Assembly: GCF_001652275.1 (NCBI RefSeq)
Contig: NZ_LVZK01000001.1
Coordinates: forward strand, 1,488,001-1,552,000
Source of the DNA: Peptidiphaga gingivicola
Lineage (GTDB): Bacteria > Actinomycetota > Actinomycetes > Actinomycetales > Actinomycetaceae
Direction: 5' to 3'
DNA: 64,000 nt
How positions within the stretch are numbered: position 1 is the first letter of the stretch; every line of letters starts with the position of its first letter. The translations under genes and the position numbers were made by a program. Below the pieces are notes generated by a model that made no database searches, had not been told where the DNA came from, and saw only the letters and a list, made by a program, of their open reading frames with translations. Positions 3,969 through 12,035 of the stretch are shown here, piece by piece.

Positions 3969-5564
3969 TCAGGACTCGTCCGTGCGGCGAATCCTCTTGC
4001 GCTGCCTGTTGCGGCGCGGGGCCGCCTGCGGGTTCTCCTTGACCGGCTTCTTGCGCTGAGACTGCCCTCGGCGCTGGGCCTGCTCGTGCTGGCGCTGCCC
4101 CGAGGGGCGTTTGCCGGATCCTGAGGACGAGCCGCGTCCCCGCCTCCCGTGCGAGCCGCCGCGTCCCTTGCCGCTGCGCCTGCCCGTTTCGCCCAGGTCT
4201 TCGATGTACTCGGCCGCCAGGCCCGCCCGCGTGCGCTTGTCCCGAGGCAGCTTTCCCGTCGCCCCCTCCGGAATGTCGAGGTCAGAGTACAGGTGCTCGG
4301 ACGTGTGGTAGGTCTCCAGCGGCTCAGGCTGGCGCAAATTGAGGGCCTTGTCGATGAGAGTCCAGCGCGGGAGGTCGTCCCAGTCGACAAAGGTGACGGC
4401 AGTCCCGGACTGCCCTGCGCGCCCGGTGCGGCCGATGCGGTGGATGTACGTCTTTTCGTCTTCGGGGCACTGGTAGTTGATGACGTGGGTGACGTCGTCG
4501 ACGTCAATGCCTCTGGCCGCGACGTCGGTGGCGACGAGGACGTCGACCTTGCCGTTGCGGAAGGCTCTCAGCGCCTGCTCGCGCGCGCCCTGGCCGAGGT
4601 CTCCGTGGAGCGCGCCGGCGGCGAAGCCCCTCTCGGTCAACTCTTCGGCGAGGCGTGCGGCGGTTCGTTTCGTCCGCGTGAAGACGATCGTCAGGCCGCG
4701 GCCTTTTGCCTGGAGGATGCGGGCGAGGACCTCGGATTTGTTGAGGGCGTGGCAGCGGTAGACCACTTGGCGCACCGATTTGACCGTCACGCCGGTGTCC
4801 GAGGGGTCCGCCGCGCGGATGTGCGTGGGCCGCGACATGTACCGCCGCGCCATCGCGACGACGGGCCCCGGCATCGTCGCGGAAAAAAGCATCGTGTGGC
4901 GGTTGGAGGGCGTGGAGGCCAAGATTTTCTCGACGTCCTCGAGGAAGCCCAGATCGAGCATTTCGTCGGCCTCGTCGAGGACGACGGTGCGAACGTAGGT
5001 CAGGTCGAGGAATCGATGTTTCATCAGATCGACGAGCCTGCCGGGGGTTCCCACGACGATCTCTGCGCCCTCTTTCAGAGCCTCCTGCTGGGGCTCGTAG
5101 GCGCGCCCACCGTACACCTCGACGATGCGCAGGCGCCGCCTGGCCGCGGCGGCGCGCAGCTCTTCGGCCACCTGCTTGGCTAGCTCGCGTGTGGGCAGGA
5201 TGACCAGACCCTGCGGCTTGCCGCGGGCCTGAACTGGGACGGACTCCCACCCCTCCTCGTCGATTCCAGCGGTGTTTTCCAGCATCGGAATGCCGAAGCC
5301 GAGCGTTTTGCCCGTTCCGGTTTTGGCCTGCCCGATGATGTCGTTTCCCCTGAGGGCGACGGGCAGCGTGAGCGCCTGTATGGGGAACGGATGGGTGATG
5401 CCCTTGTCTTTCAGCGCGTCGACGATGGGGGTTGAGACGCCGAAATCGGCGAAAACTGTCGTGGACGGAAGGTCGGCCCCCGCGGCGGAGACGTCGGCGG
5501 CGGGTTCGTTTGTTGCGGGTATGTGCACCCCGGAAGAATCGATGATGCCGGAGCCCTTGCTCAT
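3969..5564 (-). CDS. DEAD/DEAH-box ATP-dependent RNA helicase
   Basis: 531-residue superfamily 2 RNA helicase. All core motifs are present: Q-motif region (FADFGVSTPIVDAL...PIQALTLP), motif I AKTGTGKT, PTRELA, GTPGRL, motif II DEAD, motif III SAT, ATDVAARGIDVDDV and motif VI HRIGRTGRAG. After about residue 440 the protein has a low-complexity, strongly basic Arg/Gly/Ser/Gln-rich tail, as in CsdA/RhlE-like actinobacterial DEAD-box proteins, probably for non-specific RNA binding. A good ribosome site (GAAAGG) precedes the ATG. Roles in ribosome assembly, RNA decay or cold adaptation are inferred from the family. Confidence 0.95.
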   Translation of the reverse strand: MSKGSGIIDSSGVHIPATNEPAADVSAAGADLPSTTVFADFGVSTPIVDALKDKGITHPFPIQALTLPVALRGNDIIGQAKTGTGKTLGFGIPMLENTAGIDEEGWESVPVQARGKPQGLVILPTRELAKQVAEELRAAAARRRLRIVEVYGGRAYEPQQEALKEGAEIVVGTPGRLVDLMKHRFLDLTYVRTVVLDEADEMLDLGFLEDVEKILASTPSNRHTMLFSATMPGPVVAMARRYMSRPTHIRAADPSDTGVTVKSVRQVVYRCHALNKSEVLARILQAKGRGLTIVFTRTKRTAARLAEELTERGFAAGALHGDLGQGAREQALRAFRNGKVDVLVATDVAARGIDVDDVTHVINYQCPEDEKTYIHRIGRTGRAGQSGTAVTFVDWDDLPRWTLIDKALNLRQPEPLETYHTSEHLYSDLDIPEGATGKLPRDKRTRAGLAAEYIEDLGETGRRSGKGRGGSHGRRGRGSSSGSGKRPSGQRQHEQAQRRGQSQRKKPVKENPQAAPRRNRQRKRIRRTDES

Positions 5565-6001
5565 GCTTTTCCTTTCAGTGCGCGCCTCGAGGCGCTCAGT
5601 GCCGTCGGCCGATAGACGCAGCGCGCGGGAGCGTCCGCGCGTTCGTGGATGTGCGAATGGCGAGAAGTTCGGTCAACACTTGGCTTTTTGAGTGTACGGC
5701 AACCGGGAGGCACGGGAAACCGCCGACGCTTTTCGCGAACGCACGCACGCCCGCGTAACGCGTCAGAAAGCATCAAACGTCAAGTTAGTTTCGGTGATTT
5801 TAACCACATAATTTCGTGCATATCAGGCTTTTCTCAATAGACACGCCTTTTCCTGGTTGTATGACCACTGCTACATGGGTATGGTTACCCATTCGGAAGG
5901 GTCGAGACAGATCCTCCCGAAGGATAAATTGAGATCAATCCTTCCACTCACTCCTCACCAAAAATTGCACGCCATCGCGGGCAAAACTGAATGGAAACCT
6001 T
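5565..6001 (+). promoter_or_regulatory. Leader and promoter region of the exopolysaccharide locus, with three consecutive hairpins
   Basis: This 437-bp gap holds no convincing gene. An AT-rich patch contains a possible -10, CATAAT (5807-5812), with only a weak -35. Downstream are three successive inverted repeats: a perfect 7-bp stem ATGGGTA/TACCCAT with a 4-nt loop (5875-5892); TTCGG/CCGAA arms around 5893-5922; and AAGGAT/ATCCTT arms around 5921-5945. The first gene starts about 60 nt further on behind GGAAA. The layout suggests a structured 5' leader, but it matches no riboswitch class I can recognise by eye. Confidence 0.4.
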
Positions 6002-6253
6002 ATGCACTACCTGCCTTTAGCCTCCGGTACGGGACTGCTCGTCCTTGGCAACGGACTGCCGACGGGGTCGCTCCCCCTGTTGCTTGCGCGTCTGTTCGTC
6101 GACCTCGCCGGGTTGGTATTCATCGCATTGTCCCTCATCTTCCTCTTCTCGGACTTCATCGCTCGCGTCAGAGGGGCGTCGTCCGTGAAGCGGCCCCATG
6201 CCCCCCTCGGTCGGCACTTCGCCGACGGCGCGACGGCGGAAGAATTCGAGTGA
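6002..6253 (+). CDS. Small membrane protein coupled to the GT2 synthase
   Basis: 83-residue protein with a long hydrophobic stretch (about residues 25-52, LLLARLFVDLAGLVFIALSL) and a shorter hydrophobic N-terminus, followed by a charged tail. Its TGA overlaps the GTG start of the glycosyltransferase (GTGA), so the two are translationally coupled. By position and topology it resembles the small accessory membrane subunits of exopolysaccharide synthases (IcaD or PgaD type), but I see no sequence signature proving this. A GGAAA element lies 7 nt upstream of the ATG. It could be missed by annotation because a longer spurious frame overlaps it. Confidence 0.65.
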   Translation: MHYLPLASGTGLLVLGNGLPTGSLPLLLARLFVDLAGLVFIALSLIFLFSDFIARVRGASSVKRPHAPLGRHFADGATAEEFE

Positions 6254-7617
6254 CCGCCGCATCGCCGCGCTTCGTGCAAGTGCTCGACGCAATCGGGTGG
6301 TGGGGCGCGCTCCTCATGGTCTTCGTGACGGTCGTCTACGGGCTCGTCCTCCTCGTGCTTTCGCGTTCGGCCCCGCGCAAGCGCGCGGCGCGCAGGAGGG
6401 CGGTCCTCAAAGCGGCTGAAACCACCGAAGGCTCGACGCAGCTTGCCAGGCCGAGGATGGTCATTCTCATACCTTGTCTGAACGAGGCCGAGGTCATCGT
6501 CGCCAGCGTCAAGGCCCTTCTGGCTTCCCCCGCTCCGGACGTCCACATCCTCGTCATCGACGACGGCTCGGAAGACGGCACCGCCGATTTGGTTGAGAGC
6601 ATCGGCGATCCGCGAGTCTCCGTCATGCGGCGCGTCCTGCCCAACGCTCGCCTGGGCAAGGGCGAGGCCCTCAACGCCGCCCTCGACCTCGTGCGCCAGC
6701 GCTACGTCACGGGCTCGGCGAACGACGTCGTCGTCGGCGTGGTCGACGCCGACGGGCGGCTCGACCCCCATGCCATTACCGAAGCCAGGATTTCCTTCGC
6801 CGACCCGGAGGTGGGCGCGGTCCAGATGGGCGTGCGGATCAACAACCGCAGGCGCTCGCTCCTGGCGAGGATGCAGGACATGGAGTTCGTCATCTTCATT
6901 GAGGTCTTCCAGAGGGGGCGGCGCCACCTCGGGAGCGTCGGAATGGGAGGAAACGGCCAATTCGTCAGGCTCTCCGCGCTCGACGCCCTCGGACCGAATC
7001 CGTGGTCGGAGTCGCTTACCGAAGACTTCGACCTGGGAATCCGGCTCAACGCCAGCGGGTGGGTCAACGAGTTCTGCCGCGAGGCGTCCGTCCACCAGCA
7101 GGGCGTCACCAACTTCGGGCGCCTCATGCGCCAGAGGACCCGCTGGTTCCAGGGAAACCTGCAGGCTATGTCGCTGTACAAGTCCGTCGTTCGCGGACAT
7201 CGCGGGCGGGCGCGCACCGACACCCTCTTCCAGATCCTCACACCCTATTTGGTTCTGACGGCGTCCCTTTTGACCGTCTCCTTCATCATCGCCTTGGGAA
7301 TGTCGATTTATTGGGCGATTCGGGGGGTGCCGCAGCATTGGGAGTGGCTCATACTCGCGTACGTTCTCGCCTTTGGGCCTGCTCAAGCGTATGGATACAT
7401 ATATTGGCGCATAGAGCGGGTAAATAAATTTTCAATTTTTAAGGCGATTGGGTGTTCGCACATATTCGTTTTCTACGGCATGCTCGGCTACATTCCCGGT
7501 TGGTGGGCTGTGGGAAGGGCGATGTCCAACCGTACGAATTGGGCGAAGACTGCGCGCGAGGCTGAGGAACCTCAAGATGCCGCCGCTCCGGCTGTGGCGG
7601 TTGGGCAGGCCACGTGA
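6250..7617 (+). CDS. Processive family 2 glycosyltransferase (exopolysaccharide synthase)
   Basis: 455-residue membrane GT2 enzyme of the PgaC/IcaA/cellulose-synthase type, which polymerises a UDP-sugar and passes the chain through its own membrane channel. It has an N-terminal membrane helix (about 15-38), then a catalytic domain with DDGS (104-107), DAD (166-168), TED (257-259) and the processivity motif QRTRW (295-299), followed by about three C-terminal helices (330-352, 365-383, 403-420). No PilZ domain is visible. The GTG start overlaps the stop of the small membrane protein, and its own stop overlaps the next GTG. The open frame back to 5857 lacks a ribosome site and is not part of the protein. 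The neighbouring epimerase suggests UDP-GlcNAc or UDP-ManNAc as substrate. Confidence 0.9.
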   Translation: MTAASPRFVQVLDAIGWWGALLMVFVTVVYGLVLLVLSRSAPRKRAARRRAVLKAAETTEGSTQLARPRMVILIPCLNEAEVIVASVKALLASPAPDVHILVIDDGSEDGTADLVESIGDPRVSVMRRVLPNARLGKGEALNAALDLVRQRYVTGSANDVVVGVVDADGRLDPHAITEARISFADPEVGAVQMGVRINNRRRSLLARMQDMEFVIFIEVFQRGRRHLGSVGMGGNGQFVRLSALDALGPNPWSESLTEDFDLGIRLNASGWVNEFCREASVHQQGVTNFGRLMRQRTRWFQGNLQAMSLYKSVVRGHRGRARTDTLFQILTPYLVLTASLLTVSFIIALGMSIYWAIRGVPQHWEWLILAYVLAFGPAQAYGYIYWRIERVNKFSIFKAIGCSHIFVFYGMLGYIPGWWAVGRAMSNRTNWAKTAREAEEPQDAAAPAVAVGQAT

Positions 7618-8630
7618 AACATTTCAAAGACAACTCTAAGAAGGCCTCGAGGGCGTGGTCCCTCAGCCCGGCGATTCTCAACGACCTGTTCCTGACGCAA
7701 AAAGGCTCGGGGGCCGAGGAAACGGAGACGAGCGGGCAGGCCGACGCCGAGGCTTCGGCCTCCGCGAGCCAAGCCGGCTCGGCACAGGCCGGCTCGGCAC
7801 AGCAGGCCGGGGCCCCGAGTTTCCCCATGAACGCCCGCGTTCCCTCGCTCGGCGCGAACGTGGCCAATGCTCGCGTTCGGGCCGGGAAGACGAACGCCCC
7901 GCCGCCCGTCGAAGGGCCGGGGCGGGGCGGCGTCGCCGCAGGCGAGACCTCGGCCGCCCTCGGCAGCGAGGCAGACCCCTCGGCCCCCGTTGTGCGGGGC
8001 GGAAGGGCCCGCCGCCGCCCGGTCGTCTTCTTCCTCGGGCTGCTCGTGGGGGCCGGCCTCGTTCTGGCGGGAATCCTCTTCTTCCGCAGCGGGGAGGAAT
8101 GCGGCGGCTGGAAGGTCGTCTACACCGGCTACGGAGAGGTTGCGTGCGACGGGGGCGCCGTCAATCTCCACCCGACGCCGGCCGCGCAGAAAAGGGACAC
8201 CCATGCTGCGCTCGTGGTGGCCGAGGCAGGCGGGTCGGGCACCGTCGGCGCGACCGTCAAGACCACGTCTCAAGTGCGCAAAGGCAAGCCCAACCCATGG
8301 GAGGTCGGCTGGTTCCTTTTCCGGTATCAGGATCCGAGCCACTTCTACGCCGTCGTCCTCAAGCCCAACGGATGGGAGATATCCAAGCAGGACCCGGCTT
8401 ACAAGGGGAGCCAACGGTTCCTCGCCAGCGGGGACGCGCGAAAGTTCCCCGTCGGAGGGAGCTACAAAGTGACCGTCGAGCAGAAGGGGCCGGCCCAGTT
8501 CACGGTTTCGGTGGACGGCGAGCATCTGGCCGACGTCACCGACTCCGAGAGGCCCTACCCTTCGGGAAGCGTCGCCCTCTACACGGAAGACGCCGCAGTC
8601 ACCTTCACAAATATCGCCAAAGGATCGTAA
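7614..8630 (+). CDS. Membrane-anchored protein with extracellular lectin/GH16-like (DUF1080-type) domain
   Basis: 338-residue protein: cytosolic or linker N-terminus rich in Ala/Gly/Pro (about 1-130), one membrane helix (about 135-157), then a 180-residue beta-rich domain. That domain has a jelly-roll signature (WFLFRYQDPSHFYAVVL, NGWEISKQDP, FPVGGSYKVTV, VSVDGEHLADVTD, PSGSVALYTEDAAVTFTNI) of the kind found in DUF1080/family-16-like concanavalin folds. A catalytic site is not evident, so carbohydrate binding is more likely than hydrolysis. It starts with a GTG overlapping the synthase stop codon, so it belongs to the same operon. A plausible job is holding or guiding the polymer at the cell surface (inference). 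Confidence 0.75.
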   Translation: MKHFKDNSKKASRAWSLSPAILNDLFLTQKGSGAEETETSGQADAEASASASQAGSAQAGSAQQAGAPSFPMNARVPSLGANVANARVRAGKTNAPPPVEGPGRGGVAAGETSAALGSEADPSAPVVRGGRARRRPVVFFLGLLVGAGLVLAGILFFRSGEECGGWKVVYTGYGEVACDGGAVNLHPTPAAQKRDTHAALVVAEAGGSGTVGATVKTTSQVRKGKPNPWEVGWFLFRYQDPSHFYAVVLKPNGWEISKQDPAYKGSQRFLASGDARKFPVGGSYKVTVEQKGPAQFTVSVDGEHLADVTDSERPYPSGSVALYTEDAAVTFTNIAKGS

Positions 8631-8652
8631 AGCCTGAAGGGGCAACACAACC

Positions 8653-9828
8653 ATGACCAATTCTCCTGCCGAACCCATCGACGTCATGCTCGTCTACGGG
8701 ACGCGCCCCGAGGCCATCAAGATGGCCCCGCTTGTCCACGCCCTCAACCACGACGCGCGCTTCCGCCCGATCGTCGCGGTGACGGGCCAGCATCGGGAAA
8801 TGCTCGACCAGGTCCACAATTTCTTCGGCATTGCCGCCGACGTCGACCTGGACATCCACAGCCCGGGCCAGACGCTCACGCAGGTGACCACGCGCACTCT
8901 CGAAGGAGTGGGCCGCGTCATCGAGGATCGCAGGCCGGATGCAGTCTTCGTCCAAGGCGACACGACGTCGGCCTTCGCCGCCGCCCTGGCGGGCTTCTAC
9001 CACGAGCTTCCCGTCGTCCACGTCGAGGCGGGCCTTCGCACGGGGGACATATGGTCTCCCTTCCCGGAGGAGGGCAACCGACGGCTTATCGGCCAGCTTG
9101 CCGCCCTCCACCTTCCGCCCACGCCCGCGAGCAAGGAGAATCTCCTTCGCGAAAACTTCGCGTCCGAGACCATCCACGTGACCGGAAACACCGTCATCGA
9201 CGCCTTGCTCGATGCCGTCAAACGGTATGTGCCCAGCGGGGACGCGGCTCTCGACGCGGCCGTCTCCGACCCCTCGCACAGGCTCGTGCTGGTGACGGCC
9301 CACCGCCGCGAATCCTGGGGCGCGCCGATGGAGCGCATAGGGGAGGCCGTGGCGCGCCTGGCCCGGGAGCACCCCGACGTCGTCTTCGCCCTTCCTGTCC
9401 ATCGCAATCCGAAGGTGCGCGAGGCCCTCCTGCCCCATGTGAGCGTGCTGTCGAATATCATTGTCACGGAGCCTCTTGCTTACGGGGCATTCTGTACGGT
9501 GATGAACAGGGCGGACATCGTCCTCACGGATTCGGGCGGAGTCCAAGAGGAGGCGCCCGCGCTTTCCAAGCCCGTCCTAGTTTTGCGGGAGAACACCGAA
9601 CGGCCCGAAGCGGTCGAATTCGGCGTCGCCCGACTCGTCGGAACCGATTCCGACCGAATCTTTGCCGAAGCCTCTCGTCTTCTCGACGATGCCGACGCCT
9701 ACGCGGCCATGGCGCACGCGGTCAACCCCTACGGCGACGGACGCGCCTGCCAGCGCGTTCTAGCCGCGACCGCGGAGCTGTTCGGGCGAGGCGAGGCAGT
9801 CGCCGACTTCGACCCGGCTCGGCAATAG
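8653..9828 (+). CDS. wecB: UDP-N-acetylglucosamine 2-epimerase (non-hydrolysing)
   Basis: 391-residue cytosolic enzyme interconverting UDP-GlcNAc and UDP-ManNAc. Family signatures are clear: VYGTRPEAIKMAPL at the N-terminus, TGQHREMLDQ, VQGDTTSAFAAAL, HVEAGLRTGD, PEEGNRRLIG, VTAHRRESWG, and the C-terminal sugar-nucleotide site LTDSGGVQEEAP and LRENTERPEAVEFG. It lies 22 bp after the lectin-like gene and about 100 bp before the DUF2334 gene. The enzyme could also serve teichoic-acid or capsule synthesis, but its position inside this locus suggests it supplies UDP-ManNAc to the GT2 synthase. Confidence 0.93.
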   Translation: MTNSPAEPIDVMLVYGTRPEAIKMAPLVHALNHDARFRPIVAVTGQHREMLDQVHNFFGIAADVDLDIHSPGQTLTQVTTRTLEGVGRVIEDRRPDAVFVQGDTTSAFAAALAGFYHELPVVHVEAGLRTGDIWSPFPEEGNRRLIGQLAALHLPPTPASKENLLRENFASETIHVTGNTVIDALLDAVKRYVPSGDAALDAAVSDPSHRLVLVTAHRRESWGAPMERIGEAVARLAREHPDVVFALPVHRNPKVREALLPHVSVLSNIIVTEPLAYGAFCTVMNRADIVLTDSGGVQEEAPALSKPVLVLRENTERPEAVEFGVARLVGTDSDRIFAEASRLLDDADAYAAMAHAVNPYGDGRACQRVLAATAELFGRGEAVADFDPARQ

Positions 9829-9926
9829 GCCGTCGGCCGGGCGATCCCTGGTATAAACGTTCGGCCGACGTTGACAATCCACGATGCCCTCCCTCGCCGG
9901 TGGGCGCGCTGAAAGGGAAACAAACT

Positions 9927-11930
9927 ATGCAAATCAAAGTCATGTCCGCTTCGCGCGGCTCACGGAAGCGGCGGTTGAGCGCCGCGCTTGTGGCAATGGG
10001 CATTGGCTCGTCCATGTTCGTCTTGGGCCCGGCCTATGCCGACGATCCGGACGGATCGCCTTCCGCCCCCGCCAGCCTCTTGGGGGTCGGCGGAGGAAAG
10101 CAGACTCCTGCCGCGGCCAAGGCCGCAAAGGACGGAGGCGACGGCTCAGCCTCGGTGACGGGCGACAATCCCGTTCGCAGCGTGCCCGAGCCCGTGGCCG
10201 CCAAGAAGCGGGCGCTTCCGCTGTCGCTCGACTCCGGCGCGACCGTCAACCTCAAGGAGTCCCCGCAGGCCGTCGCCAAGAAGGCCCAGCAGCCGGCAAA
10301 GCGCAAGCTTGCCCGCAAGGTGCCGGCCGTTCCTGCTTCCGCCAAGGTGTGGGGGAACAAGAATGCCTCCGCCAAGGCCCTCGTGCTCTATGACACCCAC
10401 GGGGAGTACAAGCAGCTCGGCGAATACTACGCGCTGGGGACCGGGATGCTCGCCAGCCACAAAGGCAGCGTGACCGCCCTTCCCGTCTCCGAATACACTT
10501 CCGGCCTGGCGGGCCGCTACACGGCGGTCATGTACGTCGGATCGAACTACGACGAGCCGCTCCCGCGCGCCTTCATCGAGGACGTCCTCACCGGCGACGC
10601 CAAGGTGCTGTGGTCCGGCTTCAACATCTGGCAGCTCGCGAAGAACGACGACGACCGCCAGGCGTTCGTCGCCAGGTTCGGATGGGATCCGTCGACGTCC
10701 TACATCGACTCCCTTGACAAGGTCTCTACCGTGAGCTACAAGTCCCAGGAACTCACCCGGGCTGACGACAACACCAGCGGCATCATCGCCCCGCACGTCG
10801 TCGACAAGGACAAGGTCGAAGTGCTGGCCCAGGCCAACTGCAAGGACCAGGCCGGCAACGCCGCAAACTGCGGGTCCATTGCCCAGACGACCGGCTCGCA
10901 GTACCCGTGGGCCGTCCGCTCCTCGGGCCTGACCTACATCGGCGAGATTGCACTGACCTACATCAACGAGACGGATCGCTACCTCGCCTACGCCGACATC
11001 GTCGACGGCCTCCTGAGCCGCGACGGCCAGGCGCCCTCGCGCAAGGCCGCGATCCGCATCGAAGACGTCAGCCCGAACACCGAGGTCAACGACCTCAAGC
11101 CGCTCATCGACTACCTGATCTCGGAAAAGGTTCCCTTCCAGATCGCGGCCATCCCGTACTACGTCGATGCCAACGGGGTCTACAACAACGGCCAGTCCTT
11201 GACGAAGACCTTCGACCAGAACCCTGAGCTGCTCAAGCTGCTCAAGTACGCCCAGCGGCACGGCGGAACCATCGTCCAGCACGGAACCACCCACCAGTAC
11301 GGCAAGCTGAACAACCCGTACAACGGGGTCAGCGCCGACGACTTCGAGTTCTACCGCTCCTGGTGCACGGCCCAGCAGAACGGCGGGACGCCGGTCGAAT
11401 GCAAGACCGACACGTGGGTTCAGCTGGCCGGGCCGGTCCCCTCGGACTCCGTCAACTGGGCGGCCAACCGCGTGTCCCTCGGCAAGTCCGAGCTCAAGCG
11501 CGTCGGCCTGGGCAAGACCAAGCTCTTCGAGACGCCCCACTACGCGGCCTCGTGGAACTCCTACCTCGGCATGAAAAAGGCCTATTCCACCCGTTACGAG
11601 CGCGAGCTCTTCTTCCCGGGAATGCTCAACAAGGACAACGCGGGGAACAAGGGCAACTTCGGCCTCTTCTACCCCTACACCGTGAAGAACATTTACGGCA
11701 CCAAGGTTCTGCCCGAGAATCTCGGCAACTACGAGCCCGAGTCCTACAACAACCACCCGCCGCGTTCCGGGGCAGACCTCGTGAACAACGCCAAGAAGAA
11801 CCTCGTCGTGACCGACGGCAACGCCAGCTTCTTCTTCCACCCCGACTACCCGCTCAGCGAGCTGAAGGTCGCGGTCAAGGGGATCAAGGAGCTCGGCTAC
11901 ACCTTCACCCCGGCGACCAGACTCAACTGA
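9927..11930 (+). CDS. Secreted DUF2334 polysaccharide deacetylase-like protein
   Basis: 667-residue exported protein. The start at 9927 gives a classical signal peptide (basic n-region RGSRKRRLS, hydrophobic core, cleavage near GPAYADD). A Pro/Ala/Lys-rich linker follows, then a glutamine-amidotransferase-like segment (LVLYDTHGEYKQLGEYYALG, VMYVGSNYDEPLP) and a NodB-like DUF2334 domain with RIEDVSPNTEV (about 377-387), FQIAAIPYY and GGTIVQHGTTHQYG (about 442-455). The C-terminal FFFHPDYPL completes the pattern. DUF2334 is related to polysaccharide deacetylases, and a similar protein occurs in Gram-positive exopolysaccharide operons (ydaL type). It probably modifies the polymer outside the cell. 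A perfect intrinsic terminator follows the stop. Confidence 0.88.
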   Translation: MQIKVMSASRGSRKRRLSAALVAMGIGSSMFVLGPAYADDPDGSPSAPASLLGVGGGKQTPAAAKAAKDGGDGSASVTGDNPVRSVPEPVAAKKRALPLSLDSGATVNLKESPQAVAKKAQQPAKRKLARKVPAVPASAKVWGNKNASAKALVLYDTHGEYKQLGEYYALGTGMLASHKGSVTALPVSEYTSGLAGRYTAVMYVGSNYDEPLPRAFIEDVLTGDAKVLWSGFNIWQLAKNDDDRQAFVARFGWDPSTSYIDSLDKVSTVSYKSQELTRADDNTSGIIAPHVVDKDKVEVLAQANCKDQAGNAANCGSIAQTTGSQYPWAVRSSGLTYIGEIALTYINETDRYLAYADIVDGLLSRDGQAPSRKAAIRIEDVSPNTEVNDLKPLIDYLISEKVPFQIAAIPYYVDANGVYNNGQSLTKTFDQNPELLKLLKYAQRHGGTIVQHGTTHQYGKLNNPYNGVSADDFEFYRSWCTAQQNGGTPVECKTDTWVQLAGPVPSDSVNWAANRVSLGKSELKRVGLGKTKLFETPHYAASWNSYLGMKKAYSTRYERELFFPGMLNKDNAGNKGNFGLFYPYTVKNIYGTKVLPENLGNYEPESYNNHPPRSGADLVNNAKKNLVVTDGNASFFFHPDYPLSELKVAVKGIKELGYTFTPATRLN

Positions 11931-11992: not shown

Positions 11993-12035
11993 AAGGCAGG
12001 CCCACGCCCCGATGCGGCGTGGGCCTGCCTTCATC
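11993..12035 (+). terminator. Strong hairpin terminator after the exopolysaccharide locus
   Basis: A 16-bp perfect stem (11993-12008 pairing with 12016-12031; arms begin AAGGCAGGCC and end GGCCTGCCTT) with a 7-nt loop lies 60 bp after the DUF2334 stop. The following tract (TCATCTTCT) is only moderately T-rich. It closes the exopolysaccharide operon. Confidence 0.85.

What the first reader, a model, noticed from the sequence alone, without database searches (positions are those of the whole stretch)
6002..11930. Exopolysaccharide locus whose gene set fits a poly-ManNAc-like or PNAG-like polymer
Seen: a small membrane protein, a processive GT2 synthase (QRTRW), an anchored lectin-like protein, a UDP-GlcNAc 2-epimerase and a secreted DUF2334 protein lie in order, the first three with 4-bp overlaps, closed by a strong terminator. 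Known: Listeria pss and Bacillus yda-type operons combine a GT2 synthase and DUF2334-like proteins, and the Listeria polymer is reported to be ManNAc-based. Inference: the built-in epimerase would supply UDP-ManNAc, so the product may be a partly deacetylated poly-ManNAc. The lack of a PilZ domain and of a BcsB-like partner makes this different from c-di-GMP-controlled relatives.
Basis: partly seen in the sequence, partly recalled or inferred. Interest (0 to 1): 0.75.

Follow-up and report, generated by a model that had tools for sequence, protein, structure and literature searches.

The report
Actinobacterial ManNAc-type exopolysaccharide locus
Five neighbouring genes in an Actinomycetaceae genome (shared with mouth bacteria such as Actinomyces oris) look like a self-contained factory for a slime sugar built from N-acetylmannosamine, with its own sugar-precursor enzyme and without the usual c-di-GMP switch; this would be a new variant of the rare mannosamine polymers known from Listeria and E. 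coli.

Summary
Window 6002-11930 holds five co-directional genes: a small membrane protein, a processive GT2 synthase, a membrane-anchored sugar-binding protein (predicted CBM66 fold, Z 19), a WecB-type UDP-GlcNAc 2-epimerase and a secreted DUF2334 protein (predicted CE4 deacetylase fold). The set is conserved. In 200 Actinomycetaceae genomes the GT2 ortholog and DUF2334 occur in exactly the same 29, and in 28 of these the epimerase lies between them. The same module occurs in Frankia, Geodermatophilaceae, Solirubrobacterales and on a Streptomyces plasmid. This genome has no other 2-epimerase. It has no detected WecG/TagA, NeuB or UDP-ManNAc dehydrogenase to use UDP-ManNAc, and no GGDEF protein. 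The GT2 falls outside the PgaC/NodC/BcsA branches, in a clade that holds every epimerase-linked GT2 sampled. A betaproteobacterial NfrB/NfrA (NGR-type) locus carries the same epimerase plus DUF2334 pair.

Best reading: a c-di-GMP-independent, ManNAc-containing, partly de-N-acetylated exopolysaccharide. The PNAG reading is disfavoured. No chemistry is shown; the polymer identity is inferred. New variant of a known kind (Listeria Pss, E. coli NGR).

The parts
5875..5892 (.). Palindrome ATGGGTATGGTTACCCAT upstream of the operon, candidate operator
   Evidence: Only exact match to ATGGGTANNNTTACCCAT in the genome; the matching site in congener G002 (ATGGGTATAATTACCCAT) is also the only exact one there and lies at the same place, in otherwise diverged upstream DNA; absent in G001. 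Function inferred only.
6002..6253 (+). Small membrane protein (83 aa), putative synthase accessory subunit
   Evidence: No Pfam hit; one hydrophobic stretch at 22-57; homologs of the MHYSP.. type precede GT2 in Actinomyces, Geodermatophilaceae and, diverged, other loci.
6250..7617 (+). Processive GT2 polysaccharide synthase (455 aa)
   Evidence: PF13632/PF13641/PF00535 hits; DDG, DxD, TED, QRTRW; N-terminal and C-terminal hydrophobic segments; no PilZ domain found.
7132..7146 (+). QRTRW motif of the GT2 (residues 295-299)
   Evidence: motif scan.
7614..8630 (+). Type II membrane protein with an extracytoplasmic CBM66-fold carbohydrate-binding domain
   Evidence: Hydrophobic segment 134-161; C-terminal domain predicted at pLDDT 91; best structural match CBM66 of B. 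subtilis, Z 19.2, 2.9 A over 156 residues; conserved WEVxW..HFYA..KPNGWE.
8064..8627 (+). CBM66-like domain that was modelled
8653..9828 (+). Non-hydrolysing UDP-GlcNAc 2-epimerase (WecB/MnaA type), the only one in the genome
   Evidence: TIGR00236 453.7 bits; best PDB match 2-epimerase 1f6d/1vgv, E 1.9e-120; single PF02350 hit in the whole genome.
9927..11930 (+). Secreted DUF2334 protein (667 aa), predicted exopolysaccharide de-N-acetylase
   Evidence: PF10096 at residues 373-650; signal-like N-terminus; AlphaFold model pTM 0.82; CE4-type deacetylases lead the structural matches, Z 18.4.
11061..11066 (+). E379-D380, candidate CE4 motif 1 (base and metal ligand)
   Evidence: Invariant in 18 homologs; role inferred.
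11280..11294 (+). H452-x3-H456, candidate metal-binding motif 2
   Evidence: H456 invariant, H452 changed only in L046; role inferred.
11838..11840 (+). H638 in FFFHP, candidate motif 5 catalytic histidine
   Evidence: At least 90% conserved; role inferred.
11993..12031 (.). 16-bp-stem hairpin between convergent genes, putative bidirectional terminator without a T-tract
   Evidence: Region -70.4 kcal/mol, z -5.3.

Best explanation
The operon is a self-contained, synthase-dependent exopolysaccharide system. The WecB-type epimerase converts UDP-GlcNAc to UDP-ManNAc. The membrane GT2, with the small membrane protein as accessory subunit, polymerises ManNAc (as the main or an obligatory sugar) and extrudes the chain. 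The anchored CBM66-fold protein holds or guides the nascent chain at the outer face of the membrane. The secreted DUF2334 protein, a CE4-like metal-dependent deacetylase, removes some N-acetyl groups so that the polymer becomes partly cationic and sticks to the cell. The system is not switched by c-di-GMP; control is probably transcriptional. Shown here: gene content, conservation, single-copy epimerase, predicted folds, lack of detected competing UDP-ManNAc users, lack of GGDEF proteins. Inferred: substrate, polymer, deacetylation, the roles of the small protein and the CBM66-fold protein.
For: Only one 2-epimerase in the genome, inside the operon. No WecG/TagA and no NeuB; the only NDP-sugar dehydrogenase scores as UDP-glucose type (345 and 305 bits, against 155 and 138 for UDP-ManNAc dehydrogenases). 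GT2 ortholog and DUF2334 occur in the same 29 of 200 family genomes, with the epimerase between them in 28; the exception (G205) has an unlinked epimerase. Three distant GT2s (about 36-41%) in the family have the epimerase next door without DUF2334. Rearranged versions keep the set: Streptomyces plasmid, MAGs L046 and L047. A 29%-identical GT2 on a L. fermentum plasmid also neighbours wecB. The tree puts all 21 epimerase-linked GT2s in one clade apart from PgaC, NodC and BcsA. An NfrB/NfrA-type locus on a Comamonadaceae plasmid carries wecB plus DUF2334; E. coli NGR is postulated to be ManNAc-based because it needs WecB but no other ECA gene (PMC8669472, PMC8669469). Listeria Pss is a beta-1,4-ManNAc polymer with a listed deacetylase PssB (PMC6307706). 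CE4 fold and conserved residues. No GGDEF.
Against: No biochemical or genetic data. GT2 donor specificity cannot be read from sequence. Some members of the wider GT2 clade (L053, within 21 kb; L009 and L010, within about 4 kb only) show no linked epimerase. The epimerase could feed an unrecognised wall-polymer transferase. The DUF2334 of L046 has lost two candidate active-site histidines, so catalysis is not universal. The 29/29 co-occurrence is phylogenetically clustered in a few genera (g1, g4, g29 and one case in g9).
Confidence: 0.65

Rival explanations
1. PNAG-like polymer: the GT2 uses UDP-GlcNAc to make poly-GlcNAc, DUF2334 acts like PgaB/IcaB, and the epimerase is incidental or serves another pathway.
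For: Second-best NCBIfam match of the GT2 is PgaC/IcaA (97 bits); the CE4 fold is also that of PNAG deacetylases, and IcaB appears low in the structural list.
Against: The GT2 lies outside the PgaC-containing branch; the epimerase is locked into the unit in 28 of 29 genomes and adjacent even to distant GT2s; no other recognised user of UDP-ManNAc was found.
Confidence: 0.12
2. Mixed GlcNAc/ManNAc or otherwise substituted heteropolymer: the GT2 accepts both UDP-sugars present at the epimerase equilibrium, or further enzymes encoded elsewhere decorate the chain.
For: WecB-type enzymes leave both UDP-sugars in the cell (established enzymology, from own knowledge); the Listeria polymer is decorated with galactose (PMC6307706).
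Against: No second glycosyltransferase in the conserved module; this differs from the best explanation only in composition.
Confidence: 0.15
3. The epimerase supplies a wall or secondary cell-wall polysaccharide, and the EPS synthase uses another sugar.
For: WecB/MnaA epimerases feed wall teichoic acids and other wall polymers in many Gram-positives (own knowledge); 129 of 200 family genomes carry an epimerase, most of them without this locus.
Against: No TagA/WecG or NeuB hit and no UDP-ManNAc-type dehydrogenase in this genome; locus epimerases co-occur and co-move with the GT2, also on a Streptomyces plasmid.
Confidence: 0.08

Closest known systems
Listeria monocytogenes Pss exopolysaccharide (pssA-E)
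   Same: Processive GT2 synthase; beta-1,4-ManNAc polymer; a listed deacetylase, PssB (PMC6307706, PMC4125290).
   Different: Listeria has a BcsB-like PssD and a c-di-GMP receptor PssE, and no epimerase is described in the five-gene operon (PMC4125290). The present unit has an epimerase, a CBM66-fold protein and a small membrane protein, no BcsB-like or GGDEF gene, and no GGDEF protein in the genome. Whether PssB is a DUF2334 protein was not tested here.
E. coli NGR / Nfr system (NfrB, NfrA, WecB)
   Same: GT2 with DxD, TED and QxxRW whose product depends on WecB; postulated ManNAc polymer; wecB sits next to nfrB where no other copy exists (PMC8669472, PMC8669469).
   Different: NfrB has an MshEN c-di-GMP domain and works with the NfrA pore; an NfrB-type GT2 is barely similar to this GT2 (best BLASTP segment 29% over 80 residues, E 4e-4).
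Bacillus subtilis ydaJKLMN
   Same: GT2-containing EPS operon of a Gram-positive; B. subtilis also has a DUF2334 hit, which from memory is YdaL.
   Different: [quoted passage not shown] lectin binding suggests alpha-Gal and/or GalNAc in its polymer (PMC13274460); no epimerase described among the five genes.
PNAG systems pgaABCD / icaADBC
   Same: Plan of GT2 synthase plus small membrane subunit plus CE4-type deacetylase.
   Different: GT2 outside the PgaC branch and far below the PgaC/IcaA cut-off; dedicated epimerase in the operon.
XrtP-associated glycosyltransferase (NF053846)
   Same: Best NCBIfam profile for the GT2 (279 bits); two relatives sit beside exosortase-like genes.
   Different: Below the 520-bit cut-off; no exosortase-like gene in the present locus.

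Membership tests
Non-hydrolysing UDP-GlcNAc 2-epimerase (TIGR00236) | Score above the curated cut-off over the full length | tested here: met
   453.7 bits against 210.15; matches 1f6d over residues 11-372.
DUF2334 (PF10096) | Score above the gathering cut-off | tested here: met
   160.9 bits against 26.
CE4-type polysaccharide deacetylase | CE4 fold | tested here: met
   Predicted model only; CE4-type deacetylases lead, Z 18.4, 2.9 A over 224 residues.
CE4-type polysaccharide deacetylase | D-H-H metal triad and catalytic residues | tested here: inconclusive
   ED, HxxxH and a late H are conserved in order; not superposed, no metal shown; L046 lacks two of the histidines.
CE4-type polysaccharide deacetylase | Deacetylase activity | not testable with these tools
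   Needs enzymology.
Processive GT2 synthase | DxD, TED, QxxRW and membrane segments | tested here: met
CBM66 | CBM66 beta-sandwich fold | tested here: met
   Predicted model only; Z 19.2 to 4b1m/4azz, next entry 17.2. The fold is shared with other lectin-like families.
CBM66 | Fructan binding | not testable with these tools
   Ligand unknown; needs a binding assay.
PNAG synthase PgaC/IcaA | TIGR03937 cut-off, or placement with PgaC in a tree | tested here: not met
   97 against 422 bits; PgaC on the other side of well-supported branches.
Listeria Pss / Bacillus Yda type | BcsB-like subunit and GGDEF-type c-di-GMP receptor | tested here: not met
   Neither is among the five proteins; no GGDEF protein in the genome. 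BcsB elsewhere in the genome was not searched.
NGR / Nfr type | NfrB-type GT2 with MshEN domain, and NfrA | tested here: not met
   No MshEN or NfrA-type domain among the five proteins; GT2 barely similar to an NfrB-type GT2.
ManNAc-based exopolysaccharide system | Product contains ManNAc | not testable with these tools
   Inferred from the epimerase linkage only.
XrtP-associated glycosyltransferase (NF053846) | Curated cut-off and exosortase neighbour | tested here: not met
   278.9 of 520 bits; no exosortase-like gene among the five.

The most novel reading that the evidence does not exclude
A distinct, c-di-GMP-independent lineage of ManNAc-polymer machines (small membrane protein, GT2, anchored CBM66-fold protein, own 2-epimerase, DUF2334 deacetylase, often a GH-A-like hydrolase) spans actinobacteria and makes an undescribed, partly deacetylated poly-ManNAc matrix in oral Actinomyces. 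DUF2334 would then be a deacetylase family typical of ManNAc polymers across Gram-positive and Gram-negative systems.
Probability: 0.5. Interest if true: 0.72.

Novelty: new variant of a known kind. Interest (0 to 1): 0.6.

Why it matters
Only a few ManNAc polymers are known (Listeria Pss, the postulated E. coli NGR, the meningococcal A capsule), and the two synthase-dependent ones depend on c-di-GMP. A conserved actinobacterial system with its own precursor enzyme and no c-di-GMP would show that this polymer class is broader. It names a specific, testable matrix polysaccharide locus in dental-plaque Actinomyces (A. oris, A. naeslundii, A. israelii and others), and it gives the uncharacterised DUF2334 family a concrete substrate hypothesis.

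Tried and rejected
PNAG membership: rejected on tree and profile score. Wall-teichoic use of the epimerase: no GT26 (WecG/TagA) hit in this genome. Sialic-acid or ManNAcA use: no NeuB, dehydrogenase of UDP-glucose type. c-di-GMP control: no GGDEF protein. Hydrolase role for the 7614-8630 product: the PF06439 match is below cut-off and CBM66 is the top structural match. Solved homologs of the DUF2334 and CBM66-like proteins by sequence: none convincing. Library searches found no paper on this locus: DUF2334 is named in one paper, and 'poly-N-acetylmannosamine' and an Actinobacteria ManNAc-synthase query returned none; most subscription journals are not held. Listeria PssC and B. subtilis YdaM sequences could not be fetched, so they are missing from the GT2 tree. 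The genome collection could be scanned only once.
Full report
OBSERVATION. The window is positions 1488001-1552000 of contig 1 of a 2.52-Mb genome of the family Actinomycetaceae (the nearest named records are Actinomyces species and an Actinomycetaceae MAG). The five genes exist as described. Genes 1/2 and 2/3 overlap by 4 bp (GTGA), followed by gaps of 22 and 98 bp. A DEAD-box helicase gene (3969-5564, minus strand) is divergent upstream. Downstream lies a 16-bp-stem hairpin at 11993-12031 (z -5.3) with no T-tract, so it is a plausible bidirectional terminator between convergent genes rather than a textbook intrinsic one.

PARTS. GT2: PF13632, PF13641 and PF00535, with DDG, DxD, TED and QRTRW; the best NCBIfam profile is the XrtP-associated glycosyltransferase at 279 of 520 bits, with PgaC/IcaA at 97 of 422. 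Epimerase: TIGR00236 at 454 bits, closest solved relatives UDP-GlcNAc 2-epimerases such as 1f6d. Gene 3: an N-terminal low-complexity stretch, one transmembrane segment, and a C-terminal domain predicted at pLDDT 91 that matches CBM66 of B. subtilis best (Z 19.2). Its only Pfam signal (3keto-disac_hyd) is below cut-off, and a Streptomyces relative is annotated as 'family 16 glycoside hydrolase', so 'carbohydrate-binding' is the safer label. DUF2334 protein: model pTM 0.82; CE4-type deacetylases lead the structural matches (Z 18.4). R377, E379, D380, H456 and E558 are invariant, and H452 and H638 nearly so, in 18 homologs, in the order of CE4 motifs 1, 2 and 5 (the correspondence is inferred, not superposed). 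A haloarchaeal DUF2334 protein also hits Polysacc_deac_1 weakly (20.1 bits against a 23.1 cut-off). Gene 1: no family hit, but homologs beginning MHYSP.. precede the GT2 gene in Actinomyces, and similar small hydrophobic proteins do so in Geodermatophilaceae, two MAGs and a Streptomyces plasmid.

CONSERVATION. The collection scan found 24 loci. Among those with a GT2 at 48% identity or more, nearly all carry the CBM66-like, epimerase and DUF2334 genes: Actinomyces oris, naeslundii, israelii, johnsonii, massiliensis, gaoshouyii and others, two Frankia records, Geodermatophilaceae, a Solirubrobacterales MAG and another Actinomycetota MAG. A. gerencseriae (L033) shows no DUF2334 in its 21 kb. In 200 family genomes, a close GT2 ortholog (E < 1e-140) is in 29 and DUF2334 in exactly the same 29. 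In 28 of them an epimerase lies between the two; in the exception, G205, GT2 and DUF2334 are adjacent, the CBM66-like gene is missing, and an epimerase lies about 75 kb away. These genomes cluster in a few genera, so they are not independent. Three distant GT2s (G036, G068, G111) have the epimerase next door without DUF2334. A Streptomyces plasmid carries DUF2334, GT2, wecB and the CBM66-like gene in another order. A Limosilactobacillus fermentum plasmid has a 29%-identical GT2 divergent from wecB.

WHO USES UDP-MANNAC. The genome has one 2-epimerase, no WecG/TagA, no NeuB, and a single nucleotide-sugar dehydrogenase that scores higher as a UDP-glucose dehydrogenase (345 and 305 bits) than as a UDP-ManNAc dehydrogenase (155 and 138 bits). 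The GT2 of this operon is therefore the only recognised candidate consumer. An unrecognised transferase cannot be excluded.

NOT PNAG, NOT c-di-GMP. In a 39-row maximum-likelihood tree, a 27-row clade (99/95 support) contains the window GT2 and all 21 epimerase-linked GT2s. PgaC, NodC and a chitin-synthase-like GT2 fall in another branch (99/98), and BcsA outside both; none of these has an epimerase in its fetched flank. Long branches make deep placements unsure. No GGDEF protein was detected in the genome, while the same search rings in 8 of 14 control genomes. So the regulation known for Listeria Pss (PssE; PMC4125290) and E. coli NGR (NfrB MshEN; PMC8669469) is not expected here. A palindrome at 5875-5892, the only exact genomic match and conserved upstream of the operon in a congener, is a candidate operator.

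PRECEDENTS. Listeria Pss is a beta-1,4-linked ManNAc polysaccharide with terminal alpha-1,6-Gal, and PssB is listed as its deacetylase (PMC6307706). E. coli NGR needs WecB but no other ECA gene, and a catalytically dead WecB fails to restore it (PMC8669472); where no other WecB homolog exists, one is encoded next to nfrB (PMC8669469). The same logic holds here. A Comamonadaceae plasmid has wecB, an NfrB-type GT2, a small gene, DUF2334 (33% to this one), an NfrA_C/TPR protein and DUF4434 in a row. This ties DUF2334 to a second, only remotely related ManNAc-type synthase.

SIXTH GENE. In most Actinomyces loci a secreted protein of about 500 aa follows DUF2334. It shows WEIGNEIG and TELGYG motifs and a very weak GH53 signal (E 0.15), which suggests a GH-A (beta/alpha)8 hydrolase. 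The present genus lacks it at the locus and has only distant, unlinked relatives.

MECHANISM. Epimerase makes UDP-ManNAc; GT2 with its small partner polymerises and extrudes; the CBM66-like protein holds the chain at the membrane; DUF2334 deacetylates it outside. Confidence that ManNAc is the main or an obligatory sugar is about 0.65. Everything about chemistry is inference.

VERDICT. A real, conserved, coherent locus; the ManNAc reading is well supported by comparative evidence and the PNAG reading is disfavoured. New variant of a known kind.

Noticed in passing
window 5875-5892: Palindrome ATGGGTATGGTTACCCAT upstream of the operon, the only exact match to its pattern in the genome and found at the same place in congener G002 but not G001.
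   Followed up: partly
L109 4806-13752 (Comamonadaceae plasmid CP099603.1): An NGR-type locus (wecB, NfrB-like GT2, NfrA_C/TPR) that also carries DUF2334 and DUF4434 genes.
   Followed up: partly
L088 4058-7125 (Limosilactobacillus fermentum plasmid pike38): A small plasmid with a processive-type GT2 divergent from a wecB epimerase gene, possibly a minimal ManNAc polymer system.
   Followed up: no
L039 15559-17052 and homologs: A sixth conserved gene with GH-A-like motifs follows DUF2334 in most Actinomyces loci but is missing from the window's genus, which has two distant unlinked relatives in the window's genome (G000 C3:310665 and C2:27740).
   Followed up: partly
L046 5206-6831: The DUF2334 protein of a Solirubrobacterales MAG has lost two candidate active-site histidines (H452 to E, H638 to D), suggesting a non-catalytic member.
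   Followed up: no
L100 (G205 C32:36000-50000): A reduced locus with only GT2 and DUF2334, without the CBM66-like and epimerase genes; an epimerase lies about 75 kb away.
   Followed up: partly
L096 3230-6095 (Natrinema plasmid): A haloarchaeal DUF2334 gene overlapping a GT2 gene, without an epimerase in the fetched flank.
   Followed up: no
L052 9201-9821 and L053 8792-9814: Sister GT2s of about 40% identity sit beside exosortase-like genes, one of them also with an epimerase, hinting at exosortase-linked relatives of this EPS machine.
   Followed up: no
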